Below, piece by piece: positions 22,077 to 27,038 of a stretch of DNA of 64,000 nt. The notes below the pieces were generated by a model. It was not told the origin of the DNA. It saw only the letters and a list, made by a program, of their open reading frames with translations, and did no database searches. The stretch covers positions 930,001-994,000 of the forward strand of contig NZ_JARVCO010000012.1 of the NCBI RefSeq assembly GCF_034531395.1. The letters are read 5' to 3'. Within the stretch, counting starts at the first letter, position 1; each line of letters starts with the position of its first letter. Origin of the DNA: Pontiella agarivorans. GTDB lineage: Bacteria; Verrucomicrobiota; Kiritimatiellia; Kiritimatiellales; Pontiellaceae. The position numbers and the translations under genes were made by a program.

Positions 22077-22880
22077 ATGAATCGGGATATGGAATATATT
22101 TTCAGCGACCGGATGCTGAAGCTGCTGGATCATTTTACCTCGCTGACAGAAGTGCGGATTGCCTTTTTTTCGTTGAAAGGGGAGGAACTCTGCATCGGTC
22201 AGGACCGCAGTATTTGCGACTACTGTGCGATGCGCCGGCGCGAAAAGGGCTTTGATAAGGCCTGTCTCGCCAACGATGCGGCCGGCCGCCGGGCGGCACT
22301 GGAAATGGAAAGCGTTTGTTTTTATCAATGCCACGCCGGACTCTATGAGGCCGTGGTGCCGGTATATGTGGGCGAGACCCCGATCGGCTACGCCATGGTC
22401 GGGCAATTCCGTATTGTTGGATCCGAAGAAAAAGTCCGCAATGCGCACGAAGCGGAGGCGCTGGAAAAAATGCCGGTTTTTACACCGCAGAAAGCCGAAG
22501 ACCTGCTCAGTATGTTTGATGTGCTGATTCAGCACATCACCAGTCATGCACTGGTCGGGCGGCGGGACTACGACCTGCTCGATCCGCTGGTGCAGCGGAT
22601 GCGCCGGCAACCCGAAGAACGGCTCAGTCTTAAAGACGCCGCCGGAATCGTCGGTTTAAGCGCATCCCGGCTCTCGCACCTGTTCACCACCATGATCGGC
22701 GTCAGTTTCAAGCAATATCAAATGGCGCTGCGGCTCGACCGTGCGGATCGGCTCATGAAAGCCAATCCTGATTGGCGAATGGCCCGGATTGCCGAAAAAT
22801 GCGGTTTTGAAGATCCGCTCTATTTTTCCCGTGCCTATAAAAAACACCGCGGAATTCCACCCTCCAAAGCCTTCCAATGA
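22077..22880 (+). CDS. AraC-family regulator with PocR sensory domain
   Basis: 267 residues. Residues ~10-165 match the PocR ligand-binding domain, including Cys-rich ICDYCAMRR and a conserved CFYQCHAGLYEAVVPV block, thought to bind small hydrocarbon derivatives. Residues ~180-267 are a two-helix AraC DNA-binding domain (KDAAGIVGLSASRLSHLF and RIAEKCGFEDPLYFSRAYKKHRGI). The gene diverges from the UroD-family gene. PocR controls propanediol and cobalamin genes in Salmonella, so a similar local role is a reasonable inference. The ribosome site is weak. Confidence 0.88.
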   Translation: MNRDMEYIFSDRMLKLLDHFTSLTEVRIAFFSLKGEELCIGQDRSICDYCAMRRREKGFDKACLANDAAGRRAALEMESVCFYQCHAGLYEAVVPVYVGETPIGYAMVGQFRIVGSEEKVRNAHEAEALEKMPVFTPQKAEDLLSMFDVLIQHITSHALVGRRDYDLLDPLVQRMRRQPEERLSLKDAAGIVGLSASRLSHLFTTMIGVSFKQYQMALRLDRADRLMKANPDWRMARIAEKCGFEDPLYFSRAYKKHRGIPPSKAFQ

Positions 22881-22924
22881 CGGGCATATTACGGGTCGGC
22901 ATCGTGGGGCTTGCACGGAAGCTG

Positions 22925-23028
22925 TTAGTTGCCTGATGGAAATATGTTGAGTTCGGTGAAGTCCCTGAGCGCTTCAAGAGCAACCCGGCCTTAAACTCAG
23001 CGGTATGTTTCCGTCTATGCTTTTTCAT
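22925..23028 (-). pseudogene. IS3-type transposase OrfA, N-terminal remnant
   Basis: Minus-strand MKKHRRKHTAEFKA is the start of an IS3-family OrfA. After FKA a one-base shift restores VALEALRDFTELN, the usual continuation, followed by a stop. GGAG lies just upstream of the ATG. Everything after ~35 codons is missing, so this is a broken fragment at the edge of the accessory island. Confidence 0.65.
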
Positions 23029-23111
23029 AACTCCTTTACCTGCTCATTTGAGGAGTCATGCACCAAAACCTAACTTAACCCGTGGTCCAAAATCTTAAGT
23101 CCGTCTCTGCG

Positions 23112-23312
23112 CAGACCCGGGATCGAGGGGTGGGCCATCACCAGGCCGTCCGGGCACTGGCCTTCAAATGGACCCGCATCCTGTATCGATGCTGGAACGA
23201 GAAGAAACCTTATGACGAACTGCACTACTTGAGCAGGTTTAAAAAGCGGGGGTTAAGTCTGTGGAAAGTAATCGCAGAACATTCGGAAGATTTTAAATTG
23301 ATCAACCCTTAG
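23112..23312 (+). pseudogene. IS110-family transposase, C-terminal remnant
   Basis: About 66 codons (GHHQAVRALAFKWTRILYRCW) align closely to the last part of the IS110 transposase at 25001-25951. No N-terminal or catalytic part is present. The remnant ends next to half of an attC-like site at 23326-23358, as the larger copy does at 25944-25979, so both entered the same kind of target. Confidence 0.75.
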
Positions 23313-23321
23313 CAGGCTTCT

Positions 23322-24140
23322 TTATGGTTGACGGACATCCTTAGATAGCCGGTTCGGATCAGTTTTTGATGATCGTTTTCTTGCCCGTTCTAACTTTTCG
23401 CTGATGTCGTTCCCTTGAAGTTTTGCATCAACAAGATAGAAGGCTGGTATGTATGGAATTTCTGCATTTTTCGGATCAGCGTAAAAATCTGTAACAGCTC
23501 CGCTTAATTTTTGGAAGTGTGAGTTTAACTCAACGCGTTTAGTTATCTTGTTTAATACTTCTTTTTTCGGTTTTAGTTCACGGGAAAACTCTGCAATCGC
23601 ACCTTCGCATCCGGTTTTATATCCAGAAATGTAAAATCGTTTTTCTCCCTCACTCCAGCTATTCCATTTGTCTGCATATGATTCTAATTCTTCTGCTGGA
23701 GTCGGGGGTAGTTTTTGGATGTCATCACTAATTAGTGGCTGGATTTCTTCAACCCACTTCCTTTGGGCAAAGGTATACCTCACTTGAATATCGACCTGCT
23801 TTTCTGACAGTTTCATGATTTCAGGTGGGATAGAGGTTCGATACTGAATCAGGCTCTCTAATTCTTTCTTTGTGTATGTTTCATCCAAGAGGGATGTGTA
23901 ATATGGTTTCCAACTCTTCCAGTTGCAGTGCTTACGCACGATCTCTTTTATTGAATCATATGATTTCCCTTTTCCCTCATATGATTGCATGAGCTGATTG
24001 AGTATTTTCTCTGCGCCTTCATTGAATTGCAGTTCCACTCCATTGAGAATGATAAGTTTTTCAATAAGCTCATCTTTTGATTCAGAAAAGCCCGTGATGG
24101 TTACTGATATGGCTATAATGAATGTGATGATGGTTTTCAT
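23322..24140 (-). CDS. Exported DUF2059-like protein, probable integron cassette gene
   Basis: 272 residues with a signal peptide (MKTIITFIIAISVTITGFS). The middle region (ELIEKLIILNGVEL, then SLLDETYTKKELESLIQYR) resembles DUF2059 proteins of unknown function. ATG 24140 has AGGA 6 bases upstream. The gene lies between attC-like half sites at 24152-24195 (5' side) and 23326-23358 (3' side), with the last codons running into the attC arm, so the original 3' end may have been altered by the IS110 insertion. Base composition is more AT-rich than the flanking chromosome, which suggests recent acquisition. Confidence 0.7.
   Translation of the reverse strand: MKTIITFIIAISVTITGFSESKDELIEKLIILNGVELQFNEGAEKILNQLMQSYEGKGKSYDSIKEIVRKHCNWKSWKPYYTSLLDETYTKKELESLIQYRTSIPPEIMKLSEKQVDIQVRYTFAQRKWVEEIQPLISDDIQKLPPTPAEELESYADKWNSWSEGEKRFYISGYKTGCEGAIAEFSRELKPKKEVLNKITKRVELNSHFQKLSGAVTDFYADPKNAEIPYIPAFYLVDAKLQGNDISEKLERARKRSSKTDPNRLSKDVRQP
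23326..23358 (-). other. attC-like site 3, 5' half only
   Basis: On the minus strand CCGAACCGGCTATCTAAGG followed by GTCAAC aligns to the 5' half of attC-like site 2 (CCAACCAGCCATCTGAGG and GTCAACGC). The rest of the site is replaced by the IS110 remnant. Confidence 0.5.
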
Positions 24141-24151
24141 ATTTTTTCCTA

Positions 24152-24195
24152 GTCTAACGTTAAAGCCTTGTTCGTTGCCTGACTTGACGGGCGTT
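24152..24195 (-). other. attC-like site 2, 3' half
   Basis: Read on the minus strand it begins at AACGCCCG and ends in GTTAGAC, a perfect match to the attC consensus GTTRRRY, 10-20 bases before the cassette gene start. The AACGCCCG block also occurs in the intact site at 26243-26330. The 5' half of this site is at 25944-25979, on the far side of the IS110 hybrid. Confidence 0.65.
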
Positions 24196-24270
24196 TTCAC
24201 GGTAGATGCTATGTGGGGGTTGTCATTCAAAATATGATCCTTAGATCACCATAGAATAAGGAGATACATA

Positions 24271-24730
24271 ATGAACAACACACCCACACATAACGTTGAG
24301 AAATTACTCGTTGCCATGGAGCTGAGCAACAGCAAATGGCTGTTGGCTTTTTATAACGGCGAAAAGATCCGGCGCAAAAATATTGATGCCCGTGACCGCA
24401 AACGGTTTCTTGCTGAACTGGTCCTGGCCAAGCAGAAGCTGGGCTATCCTGAAGATGCTGAAGTGCTTTGCTGCTATGAGGCCGGGCCGACGGGGTTTGT
24501 GCTGGCGCGCCGGCTGATTAAACTCGGCTTCGAATGCGTGGTTATTGCTCCTTCATTGATTCCCTCGAAGTCCGGAGACAAAAAGAAAACCGACCGGCGC
24601 GATGCGCGTAAGCTGGCGGAGTTTCTGCGGTCCGGACACCTGACCCCGGTGCACATTCCCGATCTCGACGACGAGGTGATCCGCGATGTTTGCCAAGGCC
24701 GTACCGATGCCGCGCAGGGACTTGCGCGGA
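24271..24730 (+). pseudogene. IS110/IS1111-type transposase, N-terminal half
   Basis: About 153 codons of the DEDD (RuvC-like) domain: VAMELSNSKW at the first acidic site, CYEAGPTGF for the Glu, and KTDRRDARKLAEFL for the Asp pair. AAGGAG lies 7 bases upstream. The match stops at ...GLAR near 24730, after which the frame runs through a CCACGGAATACAC repeat into unrelated sequence. The serine-bearing C-terminal domain of this subtype is absent. The N-terminus looks IS1111-like, unlike the C-terminal half downstream. Confidence 0.75.
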
Positions 24731-25000
24731 CAGAAAATTATGAACCACGGAATACACGAAATACACGGAAAGGAAAGACAGGCGGTTCATGGGTAGGGCT
24801 GGTTCGCCGAACCCGCCGCCCGGTCGCCGAGGCCTTCGACCCTCCAGTCATTGGAACTTTTCAACCTCTGGAAAATGTAGACCACGACCCCAACCTCGCC
24901 GCCGCCGAAACTATTCAGCCCAACCCCATTTCGGAGGCCATTCAGTACCGCACCCTCGATCGCCAGCTTTGGGTCTGATAACGAAATAATAGGACGGACA
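24731..25000. other. Spacer between the two transposase halves
   Basis: About 270 bp homologous to neither transposase half. It holds one unit of the CCACG/AATACAC repeat (24745-24770) and two one-mismatch copies of the dispersed palindrome (24842 and 24861). No gene is supported. Confidence 0.5.
24745..24770 (+). repeat. Solo copy of the 26-bp GxxExxY-element terminal repeat
   Basis: Starts CCACGGAATACAC and ends ATACACGGAA; 23 of 26 bases match the left terminal repeat of the GxxExxY element at 55348-55373. No GxxExxY gene is next to it. Confidence 0.75.
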
Positions 25001-25951
25001 CTTACCCTTAAACTTAAGGCCTGGCGTCCGGACAGTCCGGACACCCGTAGACTGATGCTGCTGACCGAGCATCGCCGCAAACTGGTTGATCTGAGGGTCA
25101 AACTGACCAACGAACTGCGTTCCTGTCTCAAAAGCTACTATCCACTCGCCTGCGAGGTGGCCGGCGACAAGCTGAACGAAAAACTGGCTCTTGATTTTCT
25201 GGCTCGCTGGCCCACGTTTGAAAAACTCAAGCGTTCCCGTTTAACGACGGTTCGCAGCTTCTACACCCGGGGCAACAGCCGCTACTCGAAAGCCATTGAA
25301 AAACGTCTGAACGCCATCGAGCGGGCAGAGCCGGTCACCGGCGATCCGGTGATCGTTGAAAGCTTCAGCATGCAGATGCTGGCTTTGGTGGCCCAGCTTC
25401 AGAAGCTGAGGGAAACCATCCGGGAATACGACCGGCAGATCGTTCGCACCTATGCCTCGCATGCCGATGTCGCCATCATTTCAAGCTTTCCGGCCACCGG
25501 CAAAGTATTCGGCCCTCGGTTGATTGCCGCACTGGGCACCGATCGCAACCGCTTTAACTCAGCACAGGAACTGGAGAACTATTCCGGCATTGCCCCCGTC
25601 ACTGAACGCAGCGGAAAAATGCACTGGGTGCACCGACGCTGGAAGTGCTCGAACTTTATACGGCAGAGCTTTCATGAATGGGCCGGTGAGACCCGTAAGC
25701 ACTCCCTGTGGGCTCGGGCGTTCTACATCCAAGCCAGAGAGAAGGGAATGGGTCATCACCAGGCCGTCCGGGCACTGGGTTACAAATGGAACCGTATTCT
25801 GTACCGCTGCTGGAAAGAGCGGGTTCCTTACGACGAGCTGCACTATATCAGCGTACTCAAAAGACGAGGCTCTGGATTAATCAAAATCATTGCCGAACAC
25901 CCTGATGCCATTAGGCTGAACGGGCCTGTCGAAAGTCAATTTTTGCGTTGA
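25001..25951 (+). pseudogene. IS110-family transposase, C-terminal half (different subtype)
   Basis: In-frame from 25001 (LTLKLKAWRPDSPDTRRLM). It carries the coiled-coil middle region and the transposase_20-type C-terminal domain, with SSFPATGKVFGPRL, YSGIAPVTERSGK and FHEWAGETRKHS (conserved catalytic-type Ser). It belongs to the subtype ending in GYKWNRILYRCW. The N-terminal DEDD domain that should precede it is missing, so neither half can make an active enzyme alone. A shorter paralogue lies at 23112-23312. Confidence 0.8.
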
Positions 25952-25979
25952 CGGAGAACCTCAGATGGCTGGTTGGAAG
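25944..25979 (-). other. attC-like site 2, 5' half
   Basis: Minus strand CTTCCAACCAGCCATCTGAGG, 5 bases after the stop of the 82-codon gene, then GTCAACGC next to the IS110 end. The first 8 bases are the exact reverse complement of that cassette's own start border (GTTGGAAG), as required for a cassette that closes into a circle. Confidence 0.65.
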
Positions 25980-25983
25980 TCTT

Positions 25984-26232
25984 TTAGTCTACTTTGACTT
26001 TGTGCACATGAGCGAGAATACGTTTAACTTCGTACATCTCAGTTTGTAGCTCTTGGATTTTTTTCTTTTGTTCAAGATGATGTGCATCAGCTTGAGATAT
26101 GCGTGAGAAGATTGCAGCTACTGCGGATGCAGCAATAATTCCGATACCCATGGTTGCTTCAGATAACGATGCAATTCCGAGCAACGTTCCAAGTATTGCG
26201 ATGAGTCCAAAAATCACGCCAATTATTTTCAT
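25984..26232 (-). CDS. Small membrane protein with coiled coil, probable cassette gene
   Basis: 82 residues. Two short hydrophobic helices (VIFGLIAILGTLLGIASL and MGIGIIAASAVAAIF) are followed by a charged coiled-coil tail (LEQKKKIQELQTEMYEVKRIL). No known family was recognised. GAGG lies 6 bases upstream of the ATG. It is flanked by attC-like sites on both sides, in the same orientation as the other two cassette genes, which is typical of integron cassettes encoding small unknown proteins. Confidence 0.7.
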   Translation of the reverse strand: MKIIGVIFGLIAILGTLLGIASLSEATMGIGIIAASAVAAIFSRISQADAHHLEQKKKIQELQTEMYEVKRILAHVHKVKVD

Positions 26233-26242
26233 ATTTTTCCTC

Positions 26243-26330
26243 TTCCAACGTTAATCCTGACCCGCTTGGGAAACAAACTTTGCCTTCAAAAACGGGCGTT
26301 GTTCAAGTAGGGTCCGGGATCTGGTTGGTC
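26243..26330 (-). other. attC-like site 1 (intact)
   Basis: 88 bp. On the minus strand it starts GACCAAC and ends GTTGGAA. The arms CCAACCAGATCC/GGACCC and GGGTCAGGAT/GTTGG are imperfect inverted repeats with unpaired bases and a long central loop. That is the folded layout of integron recombination sites. It lies directly between the stop of the DUF2628 gene and the start of the 82-codon gene. Confidence 0.7.
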
Positions 26331-26334
26331 TTTT

Positions 26335-26715
26335 TTATTCAGGTATCTGCTGTTTTCTAAACGAACTCATTGCTTCATCAAAACAGCCAGCTTCTGATTC
26401 ATATATCAACTTGTATCCTTTTTTTACCAAGTGAGCTTCTTTCCTACGGCTTGCTATGTTTCCAATCCAAATCCATAACACTATTAAAGCCGCTAGGTTG
26501 AATATTGAGCCCATGGTTGTGTTGTGGGTTAATCGGCTAATCACTTGTGCGACAACGCTAATGGTTAACGATATTAGAAACCATTTAAGAGCGCATTTGA
26601 ATAATCCTTGCGTTAGCGCCCACAGCCACCCAAAAAAGAAAGCGAACCAGAGGAAACCAACTTTCACTGTTTCTTGTCGCTTTTCTTCATGTTCGTAAAT
26701 TCGATAGATATTCAT
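26335..26715 (-). CDS. DUF2628-like membrane protein, probable cassette gene
   Basis: 126 residues with three or four hydrophobic segments and the DUF2628-type start (YRIYEHEEKRQETVKVGFLWFAFFFG). Function is unknown. Such proteins are frequent in integron cassettes. Its 5' border on the minus strand (GTTGGTC at 26736-26730) is the exact reverse complement of its 3' border (GACCAAC at 26330-26324), as expected of one cassette. It is the cassette nearest the array edge; no integrase or promoter was identified beyond it. Confidence 0.75.
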   Translation of the reverse strand: MNIYRIYEHEEKRQETVKVGFLWFAFFFGWLWALTQGLFKCALKWFLISLTISVVAQVISRLTHNTTMGSIFNLAALIVLWIWIGNIASRRKEAHLVKKGYKLIYESEAGCFDEAMSSFRKQQIPE

Positions 26716-27038
26716 TTTATATTTTCCGAGACCAACAGTGTGGTTGATATGTATTGCATATTCCGGTGCAGGTATATCCTTTCGGCCATTCGTACCGTAT
26801 TTGGAATCAAGCTACCTTATATTGATGAGCGTGAAAAATAATCTTTTGCAAAGATTTGGTGCGGCAGGGGACGGTCTGTTCTTTCCAAGGGCTGGAAAAG
26901 GCGGTGCGTTTCCGCGGCATCGCAGGTTTCATAATTTGAGACAAACATGTTAATTCTCAGGATCAGGATACGGTGAAAGCAGGGAAAGGCTTTTAAATAT
27001 TGCCTGAAGTTAAATGTTTGTGGTAACAACTGGCCACT
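26716..27038. other. Divergent intergenic region at the array edge
   Basis: 323 bp between the DUF2628 cassette and the LacI-type gene. It contains the cassette border at 26730-26736 and one exact palindrome copy (26883). The lacI promoter should lie near its right end, where TTGT/ACAA half-sites flank GGTA close to 27022; this is too weak to call an operator. No integron integrase gene or clear attI was seen. Confidence 0.5.
26883..26897. repeat. TTCCA-N5-TGGAA palindrome, copy 8 (intergenic)
   Basis: Exact copy, centre AGGGC, about 140 bp upstream of the LacI-type gene. Confidence 0.8.

What the first reader, a model, noticed from the sequence alone, without database searches (positions are those of the whole stretch)
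23326..26736. Three small genes separated by attC-like sites: an integron cassette cluster without an integrase
Seen: three minus-strand small genes (DUF2059-like, an 82-residue membrane protein, DUF2628-like) with attC-like sites after them. The intact site (26243-26330) starts GACCAAC, ends GTTGGAA and has imperfectly paired arms with unpaired bases. Cassette borders are self-complementary as needed for a circle: GTTGGTC with GACCAAC for DUF2628, GTTGGAAG with CTTCCAAC for the 82-residue gene. The third cassette's 5' border, GTTAGAC, fits GTTRRRY. Known: clusters of attC sites lacking an integrase (CALIN) exist. No integrase gene is visible here.
Basis: partly seen in the sequence, partly recalled or inferred. 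Interest (0 to 1): 0.75.

Follow-up and report, generated by a model that had tools for sequence, protein, structure and literature searches.

The report
Relic integron cassettes broken by IS110
These are real leftover integron gene cassettes in a marine bacterium whose genome holds at least 46 more such cassette sites, and two of the three sites here were broken by a jumping element whose full-length relatives appear to use a guide RNA to find exactly these sites.

Summary
Confirmed with corrections. The genome is Pontiella agarivorans NLcol2T (Kiritimatiellota). The spacer at 26243-26330(-) is a genuine attC site. A covariance model built from the array beside a true intI in a same-genus genome scores it 86 bits (E=5e-21), and it is one of 47 attC sites in this genome. 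Cassettes 1 and 2 obey the border rule (R' complementary to the next R''), which holds for 85 of 98 consecutive attC pairs; cassette 3 does not. All 11 close copies of this IS110 with a readable right end, in six genomes, sit at one point in attC, core CT, beside R''. Full-length copies carry an upstream RNA with the two-loop fold of an IS110 bridge RNA; its donor guides match the element's ends, its right target guide AACCAG matches the conserved attC spacer, and in two of three copies the left guide matches the variable attC arm of that copy's own site. "No integrase" is true only of a draft broken at attC arrays, with contigs under 2.5 kb discarded. The cluster is a known kind; an attC-reading IS110-type element looks like a new variant.

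The parts
26730..26736 (-). 5' border of cassette 1, GTTGGTC (outer end of cluster; no attC or attI before it)
   Evidence: sequence; complementary to R'' of attC1; no second CM hit in window
26335..26715 (-). cassette 1 gene, DUF2628 membrane protein, 126 aa
   Evidence: PF10947 E=2.4e-8; no homologue in 94 relatives at E<=1e-8
26243..26330 (-). attC1, intact, 88 bp
   Evidence: CM R1 86.1 bits, E=5.1e-21; close match to attC L050:6499-6586 of the intI-bearing integron in G025
25984..26232 (-). cassette 2 gene, 82 aa, one membrane segment plus coiled coil by eye, orphan
   Evidence: no Pfam/PADLOC hit over threshold
25971..25978 (-). attC2, 5' remnant: R''+C (TTCCAAC+C)
   Evidence: abuts IS110 right end; complementary to cassette 2 border GTTGGAA
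25010..25970 (+). IS-B fragment: C-terminal part of IS110 transposase (25055-25951) and right end ...CCTCAGATGGCT, core CT at 25969-25970
   Evidence: PF02371, NF033542; 80% identical to G025 copy L107; junctions
24736..25009 (.). foreign segment inside the composite, related to repeats elsewhere in the genome
   Evidence: DNA matches at C7:337-351k, C10:404-406k, C4:139k
24207..24735 (+). IS-A fragment: N-terminal part of a different IS110 transposase (24271-24735) with a short leader
   Evidence: no match to IS-B N-termini; 94% to own C10:404k copy
24152..24206 (-). attC2, 3' remnant ending in R' GTTAGAC (24152-24158)
   Evidence: attC profile positions 20-85, weak on its own, E=0.33; sequence
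23322..24140 (-). cassette 3 gene, about 272 aa, secreted-looking orphan; C-terminus altered by the IS110 end
23351..23358 (-). attC3, 5' remnant: R''+C (TCCGAAC+C)
   Evidence: follows IS-B right end
23082..23350 (+). second IS-B remnant (C-terminal 66 codons plus right end)
   Evidence: 62% identity to window IS-B; right-end motif 23327-23350

Best explanation
A relic of a chromosomal integron. Three gene cassettes were placed here by an integron integrase, either by off-target insertion from the main array or by rearrangement of that array. They were then immobilised when IS110-type elements inserted into two of the three attC sites. SHOWN by sequence: attC1 is a true attC; the genome carries a large array broken over contig ends; the genus carries intact intI-attC integrons; the IS110 (IS-B) sits at one fixed point of attC wherever its right end is readable. 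INFERRED: intact IS-B makes a bridge RNA from its ~300-nt upstream region. Its donor loop holds the element's own ends. In its target loop an invariant right guide (AACCAG) pairs with the conserved attC spacer CTGGTT, and a variable left guide pairs with the variable L'' arm of attC. Insertion at the CT core separates R'' from the rest of attC, so the cassette can no longer fold and recombine.
For: attC: 21-pair structure on 19 sites, covariation 0.579 against 0.163+-0.021 shuffled and at most 0.156 slid; window hit 86 bits; 47 hits in own genome; zero hits at E<=1e-4 in several class-mates such as G043, G046, G049, G051. Border rule 85/98. True IntI in 47 of 97 relatives, 11 or more in the genus; G025 array of ~70 attC beside intI. 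IS-B: 11/11 right ends in six genomes read CT|GGTTNG-type attC R'' (CGTT in one); four left ends read N4-CT|TATAGG after an attC arm. Joined flanks of the G025 copy regain an attC match (37 bits, against 26 for the left flank alone). Three leaders fold into two internal-loop hairpins. Donor guides CTCRGAT + CTATAAG present in 3/3, in 0 of 15000 shuffles; left guide equals the copy's own site for 6 nt in two of three (summed match P=0.004).
Against: Cassette 3's borders do not pair, so its history is more complex. No relative shows the empty site. The left guide of the G025 copy mismatches its site at 2 of 6 positions. AACCAG alone occurs by chance in 6-9% of shuffled leaders. Only three leaders exist and they are homologous, so they are not independent. 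The IS copies in the window have lost their leaders, so their own guides cannot be read. No transcription or activity data.
Confidence: 0.85

Rival explanations
1. The spacer is an ordinary palindromic intergenic repeat or terminator, not attC.
For: Both attC and REP-like repeats are imperfect palindromes, and IS110 elements often target REPs (PMC11208160).
Against: Same sites stand in a ~70-site array beside a TIGR02249 intI in G025; R'/R'' borders complementary across cassettes, not only within sites, 85/98; extrahelical base and covariation.
Confidence: 0.03
2. The cluster arose by off-target (attG-like) insertion of cassettes excised from the main array, with IntI in trans, rather than by breakage of the array.
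For: Small dispersed clusters also at C12:731k, C10:20k, C10:404k, C7:196k, C7:347k; the outer border of cassette 1 is a bare G|TTGGTC with no attC or attI before it; attG insertion is a described route (Loot et al. 2024, cited in PMC11023631; also route (i) in PMC8618304).
Against: No empty-site comparison available; the downstream end of the cluster is destroyed by IS remnants.
Confidence: 0.5
3. The IS110 elements hitchhiked inside cassettes and do not target attC.
For: Integron regions accumulate IS elements; IS-A fragments also lie near arrays.
Against: 11/11 IS-B right ends at the same base of attC, in one orientation, in six genomes and next to different cassette sequences; left ends in the matching half of the site; more distant relatives (43-53% identity: L099, L100, L103) do not lie in attC.
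Confidence: 0.05
4. P. agarivorans has truly lost intI and all its attC are relics.
For: No IntI in the assembly.
Against: Assembly breaks at six array ends and dropped contigs under 2.5 kb (PMC10880615); array borders are mostly intact.
Confidence: 0.3

Closest known systems
CALIN, cluster of attC sites lacking an integron integrase (PMC9024848, PMC8618304)
   Same: attC-bearing cassettes with no nearby intI; small orphan genes; genome-level array elsewhere
   Different: only one attC is intact in the window; the other two are cut by IS110 elements
Sedentary chromosomal integron (Vibrio, Xanthomonas, Treponema type)
   Same: long array of similar attC beside intI in the same-genus genome G025; many cassettes without long ORFs
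   Different: Kiritimatiellota host; intI not in this draft; numerous ~240-bp cassettes of one non-coding type
IS1111-attC group (ISKpn4, ISPst6, ISPa21, ISPa25; PMC11187229, PMC11616780)
   Same: DEDD transposase, insertion at one point of attC in fixed orientation, RNA guide matching attC
   Different: IS-B has its long non-coding region upstream of tnp (IS110 type) and only about 19 nt after the stop codon; I could not read Tetu and Holmes 2008 to compare exact insertion points
IS621 / ISCro4 bridge-RNA recombinases (PMC11208160; PDB 8wt6, 9t56)
   Same: upstream RNA with two internal-loop hairpins, target then donor; CT core; transposase related by sequence (E=6e-6 and 9e-7)
   Different: target is attC; only distant sequence similarity; no Rfam match

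Membership tests
attC site | R''(...AAC) and R'(GTT...) pairing, L''/L' pairing with an extrahelical base, variable centre | tested here: met
   the R' GTTGGAA and R'' GACCAAC depart slightly from GTTRRRY/RYYYAAC
attC site | recombined by IntI as folded bottom strand | not testable with these tools
   needs an excision assay
Integron (complete) | intI gene | tested here: not met
   only XerC/XerD in the assembly; the assembly is gapped at arrays
CALIN | at least two attC sites clustered, no intI | tested here: inconclusive
   one intact site by CM plus two IS-split remnants; five other dispersed clusters of 2-3 sites in the genome
IS110-type IS | DEDD transposase with Transposase_20 domain | tested here: met
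   L096: PF01548 and PF02371, NF033542 154 bits over the 140 cut-off
IS110-type IS | longer non-coding region upstream of tnp, coding a bridge RNA | tested here: met
   about 300 nt upstream; two-loop consensus fold and donor guides. Transcription not tested
IS1111-attC group | non-coding region downstream of tnp, subterminal inverted repeats | tested here: not met
   about 19 nt between stop codon and right end; inverted repeats not specifically searched
IS1111-attC group | specific insertion into attC | tested here: met

The most novel reading that the evidence does not exclude
An IS110-type (upstream bridge RNA) family in Kiritimatiellota is an RNA-guided parasite of integrons. A fixed right guide reads the conserved attC spacer while the left guide is re-tuned copy by copy to the variable attC arm, and the insertions turn mobile cassettes into fixed chromosomal genes.
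Probability: 0.6. Interest if true: 0.7.

Novelty: new variant of a known kind. Interest (0 to 1): 0.5.

Why it matters
It documents cassette arrays across the genus Pontiella (no held paper names both Pontiella and integrons). It also points to a second, IS110-type, RNA-guided solution for hitting attC besides the IS1111-attC group. attC sites vary in sequence by nature, so copies whose left guide matches the arm of their own site would be a natural record of guide reprogramming, and a natural way for cassettes to become permanent.

Tried and rejected
Rfam scans of window and leaders: no match. A simple R''/R' detector with canonical RYYYAAC/GTTRRRY missed attC1 because its ends are non-canonical; replaced by a relaxed search and a CM from the G025 array. 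Empty-site comparison through the LacI neighbour failed: upstream context differs in G005, G014 and G017. Cassette proteins: no homologues in relatives, no defence-system hit of weight. IS-A as a second attC-targeting element: junctions unclear, not claimed. First guess that the left guide was CTCCANNNNCT next to the right guide was dropped for the position shown by the consensus fold.

Full report
WHERE IT IS. The window is G000:C12:930001-994000 of a 4,436,865-bp, 12-contig genome. These numbers, and the length of C12 (1,265,434), equal those published for Pontiella agarivorans NLcol2T, a Kiritimatiellota bacterium assembled from Illumina reads with contigs under 2.5 kb removed (PMC10880615; C12 length).

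IS THE SITE REAL. The same-genus genome G025 (one contig, 4.1 Mb) has an intI gene at TIGR02249 448 bits (cut-off 265). It is followed by about 70 sites of ~88 bp in ~39 kb. One of them, L050:6499-6586, is a close match to the window site. Nineteen sites were aligned. The attC structure (R''/R', L''/L' with one extrahelical base, and an inner helix) shows 96 both-side changes against 37 expected, and a covariation score of 0.579 against 0.163+-0.021 shuffled; slid controls reach at most 0.156. A covariance model from these sites (the window site was one of the 19) gives one window hit, 26243-26330(-), 86.1 bits, E=5e-21. It finds 47 sites in the genome. Two whole small contigs (C1, C11) and the ends of C4, C7, C10 and C12 are attC arrays. 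The same model finds nothing at E<=1e-4 in G043, G046, G049, G051 and others. In the arrays each R' is the exact complement of the next R'' in 85 of 98 cases (12.8 expected by shuffling, maximum 24). That is what a cassette circle with a foldable attC requires. Window cassettes 1 and 2 obey it; cassette 3 does not.

INTEGRASE. The own genome has only XerD and XerC. Because the assembly breaks at arrays and short contigs were dropped, absence of intI is not established. At least 11 same-genus genomes have a full IntI.

Between genes 2 and 3 lies a composite of two different IS110 elements. IS-A (N-terminal part, 24271-24735) is followed by a foreign segment, then IS-B (C-terminal part and right end, to 25970). 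A second IS-B remnant covers 23082-23350. In both, the right end ...CCTCAGATGGCT (mutated in the remnant) is followed at once by the R'' of attC. Across six genomes all 11 IS-B copies with a readable right end do the same. Four left ends, TATAGGTATTCCA, are preceded by attC arm sequence ending in CT. Joining the two flanks of the G025 copy gives CATCCAACCAGAACGTGGAGCCTACTTGGACAACGCCCG, an attC (profile 37 bits; left flank alone 26). So IS-B inserts at CT in the spacer between R'' and the L'' arm. More distant IS110 relatives (43-53% identity) do not sit in attC.

HOW IS-B PROBABLY FINDS attC. Intact IS-B (1.58-1.63 kb) has about 19 nt after its stop codon and about 300 nt before its start. That is the IS110 layout, not the IS1111 one (PMC11187229, PMC11208160). 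Three leaders (own C12:1264629, G025, G032) share a consensus fold of two hairpins with internal loops. The second loop holds CTC(A/G)GAT and CTATAAG, matching the element's right end and the CT-TATAG start, in all three and in none of 15000 shuffles. The first loop holds an invariant AACCAG, the complement of the conserved attC spacer CTGGTT. On its other strand it holds a hypervariable stretch: ATGTTC in the own copy (its site reads ATGTTCT|), ACTTGA in the G032 copy (its site reads ACTTGACT|), and GACCCTC in the G025 copy (its site reads ACGTTCT|, two mismatches). The summed guide-site match has P=0.004 by shuffling. By analogy with IS621 these are the donor and target loops of a bridge RNA. 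Expression and function are inferred, not shown.

HOW IT AROSE. The window cluster lies about 309 kb from its contig end, as one of several small dispersed clusters, many with decayed attC. The outer border of cassette 1 has no attC or attI before it. This fits off-target insertion of cassettes (attG route) at least as well as array breakage. No relative offers an empty site.

WHAT IS KNOWN. Integrons are recorded in Verrucomicrobiota (PMC8618304), CALINs are common and inflated by draft assemblies (PMC9024848), and IS1111-attC elements with seekRNA guides are established (PMC11187229). No held paper combines Pontiella with integrons, and none found describes an IS110-type attC-targeting element. 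The library lacks most subscription papers, including Tetu and Holmes 2008. Verdict: a genuine but ordinary integron relic, made more interesting by a likely RNA-guided, attC-specific IS110-type element.

Noticed in passing
L050:18214-19895, L151:96-335, L062:713-952, L063 and L150 (own C11, C10, C1): A ~240-bp cassette without a long ORF, with an internal repeated unit (CGGACAACCTGC...), recurs in at least 16 copies in the G025 array and at least 3 in the own arrays; it looks like a proliferating non-coding cassette.
   Followed up: partly
G025:C1:2701755-2702536 (L112, L116): A second partial IS-B leader lies just upstream of the intact copy, suggesting tandem insertion at the same attC.
   Followed up: no
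G031:C2:9785-10162, G025:C1:2344775, G032:C1:1042170 and 1047105: IS-A-type IS110 genes lie beside intI or at array ends in several genomes; they may also target integron sites.
   Followed up: partly
window 24736-25009; G000 C7:337-351k, C10:404-406k, C4:139k: A segment with GAACCACGGAATACACGAAATACACGG-type sequence recurs in the genome near IS110 pieces.
   Followed up: no
window 22753-23028 (-): Start of what looks like a broken IS3-type orfA (MKKHRRKHTAEFKAG), part of an IS graveyard at the left edge of the cluster; no Pfam hit.
   Followed up: no
window 25055-25951: The IS110 C-terminal part also matches the TIGR-Tas endonuclease model weakly (NF052498, E=4.7e-5), in line with the published link between TIGR-Tas and IS110.
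   Followed up: no
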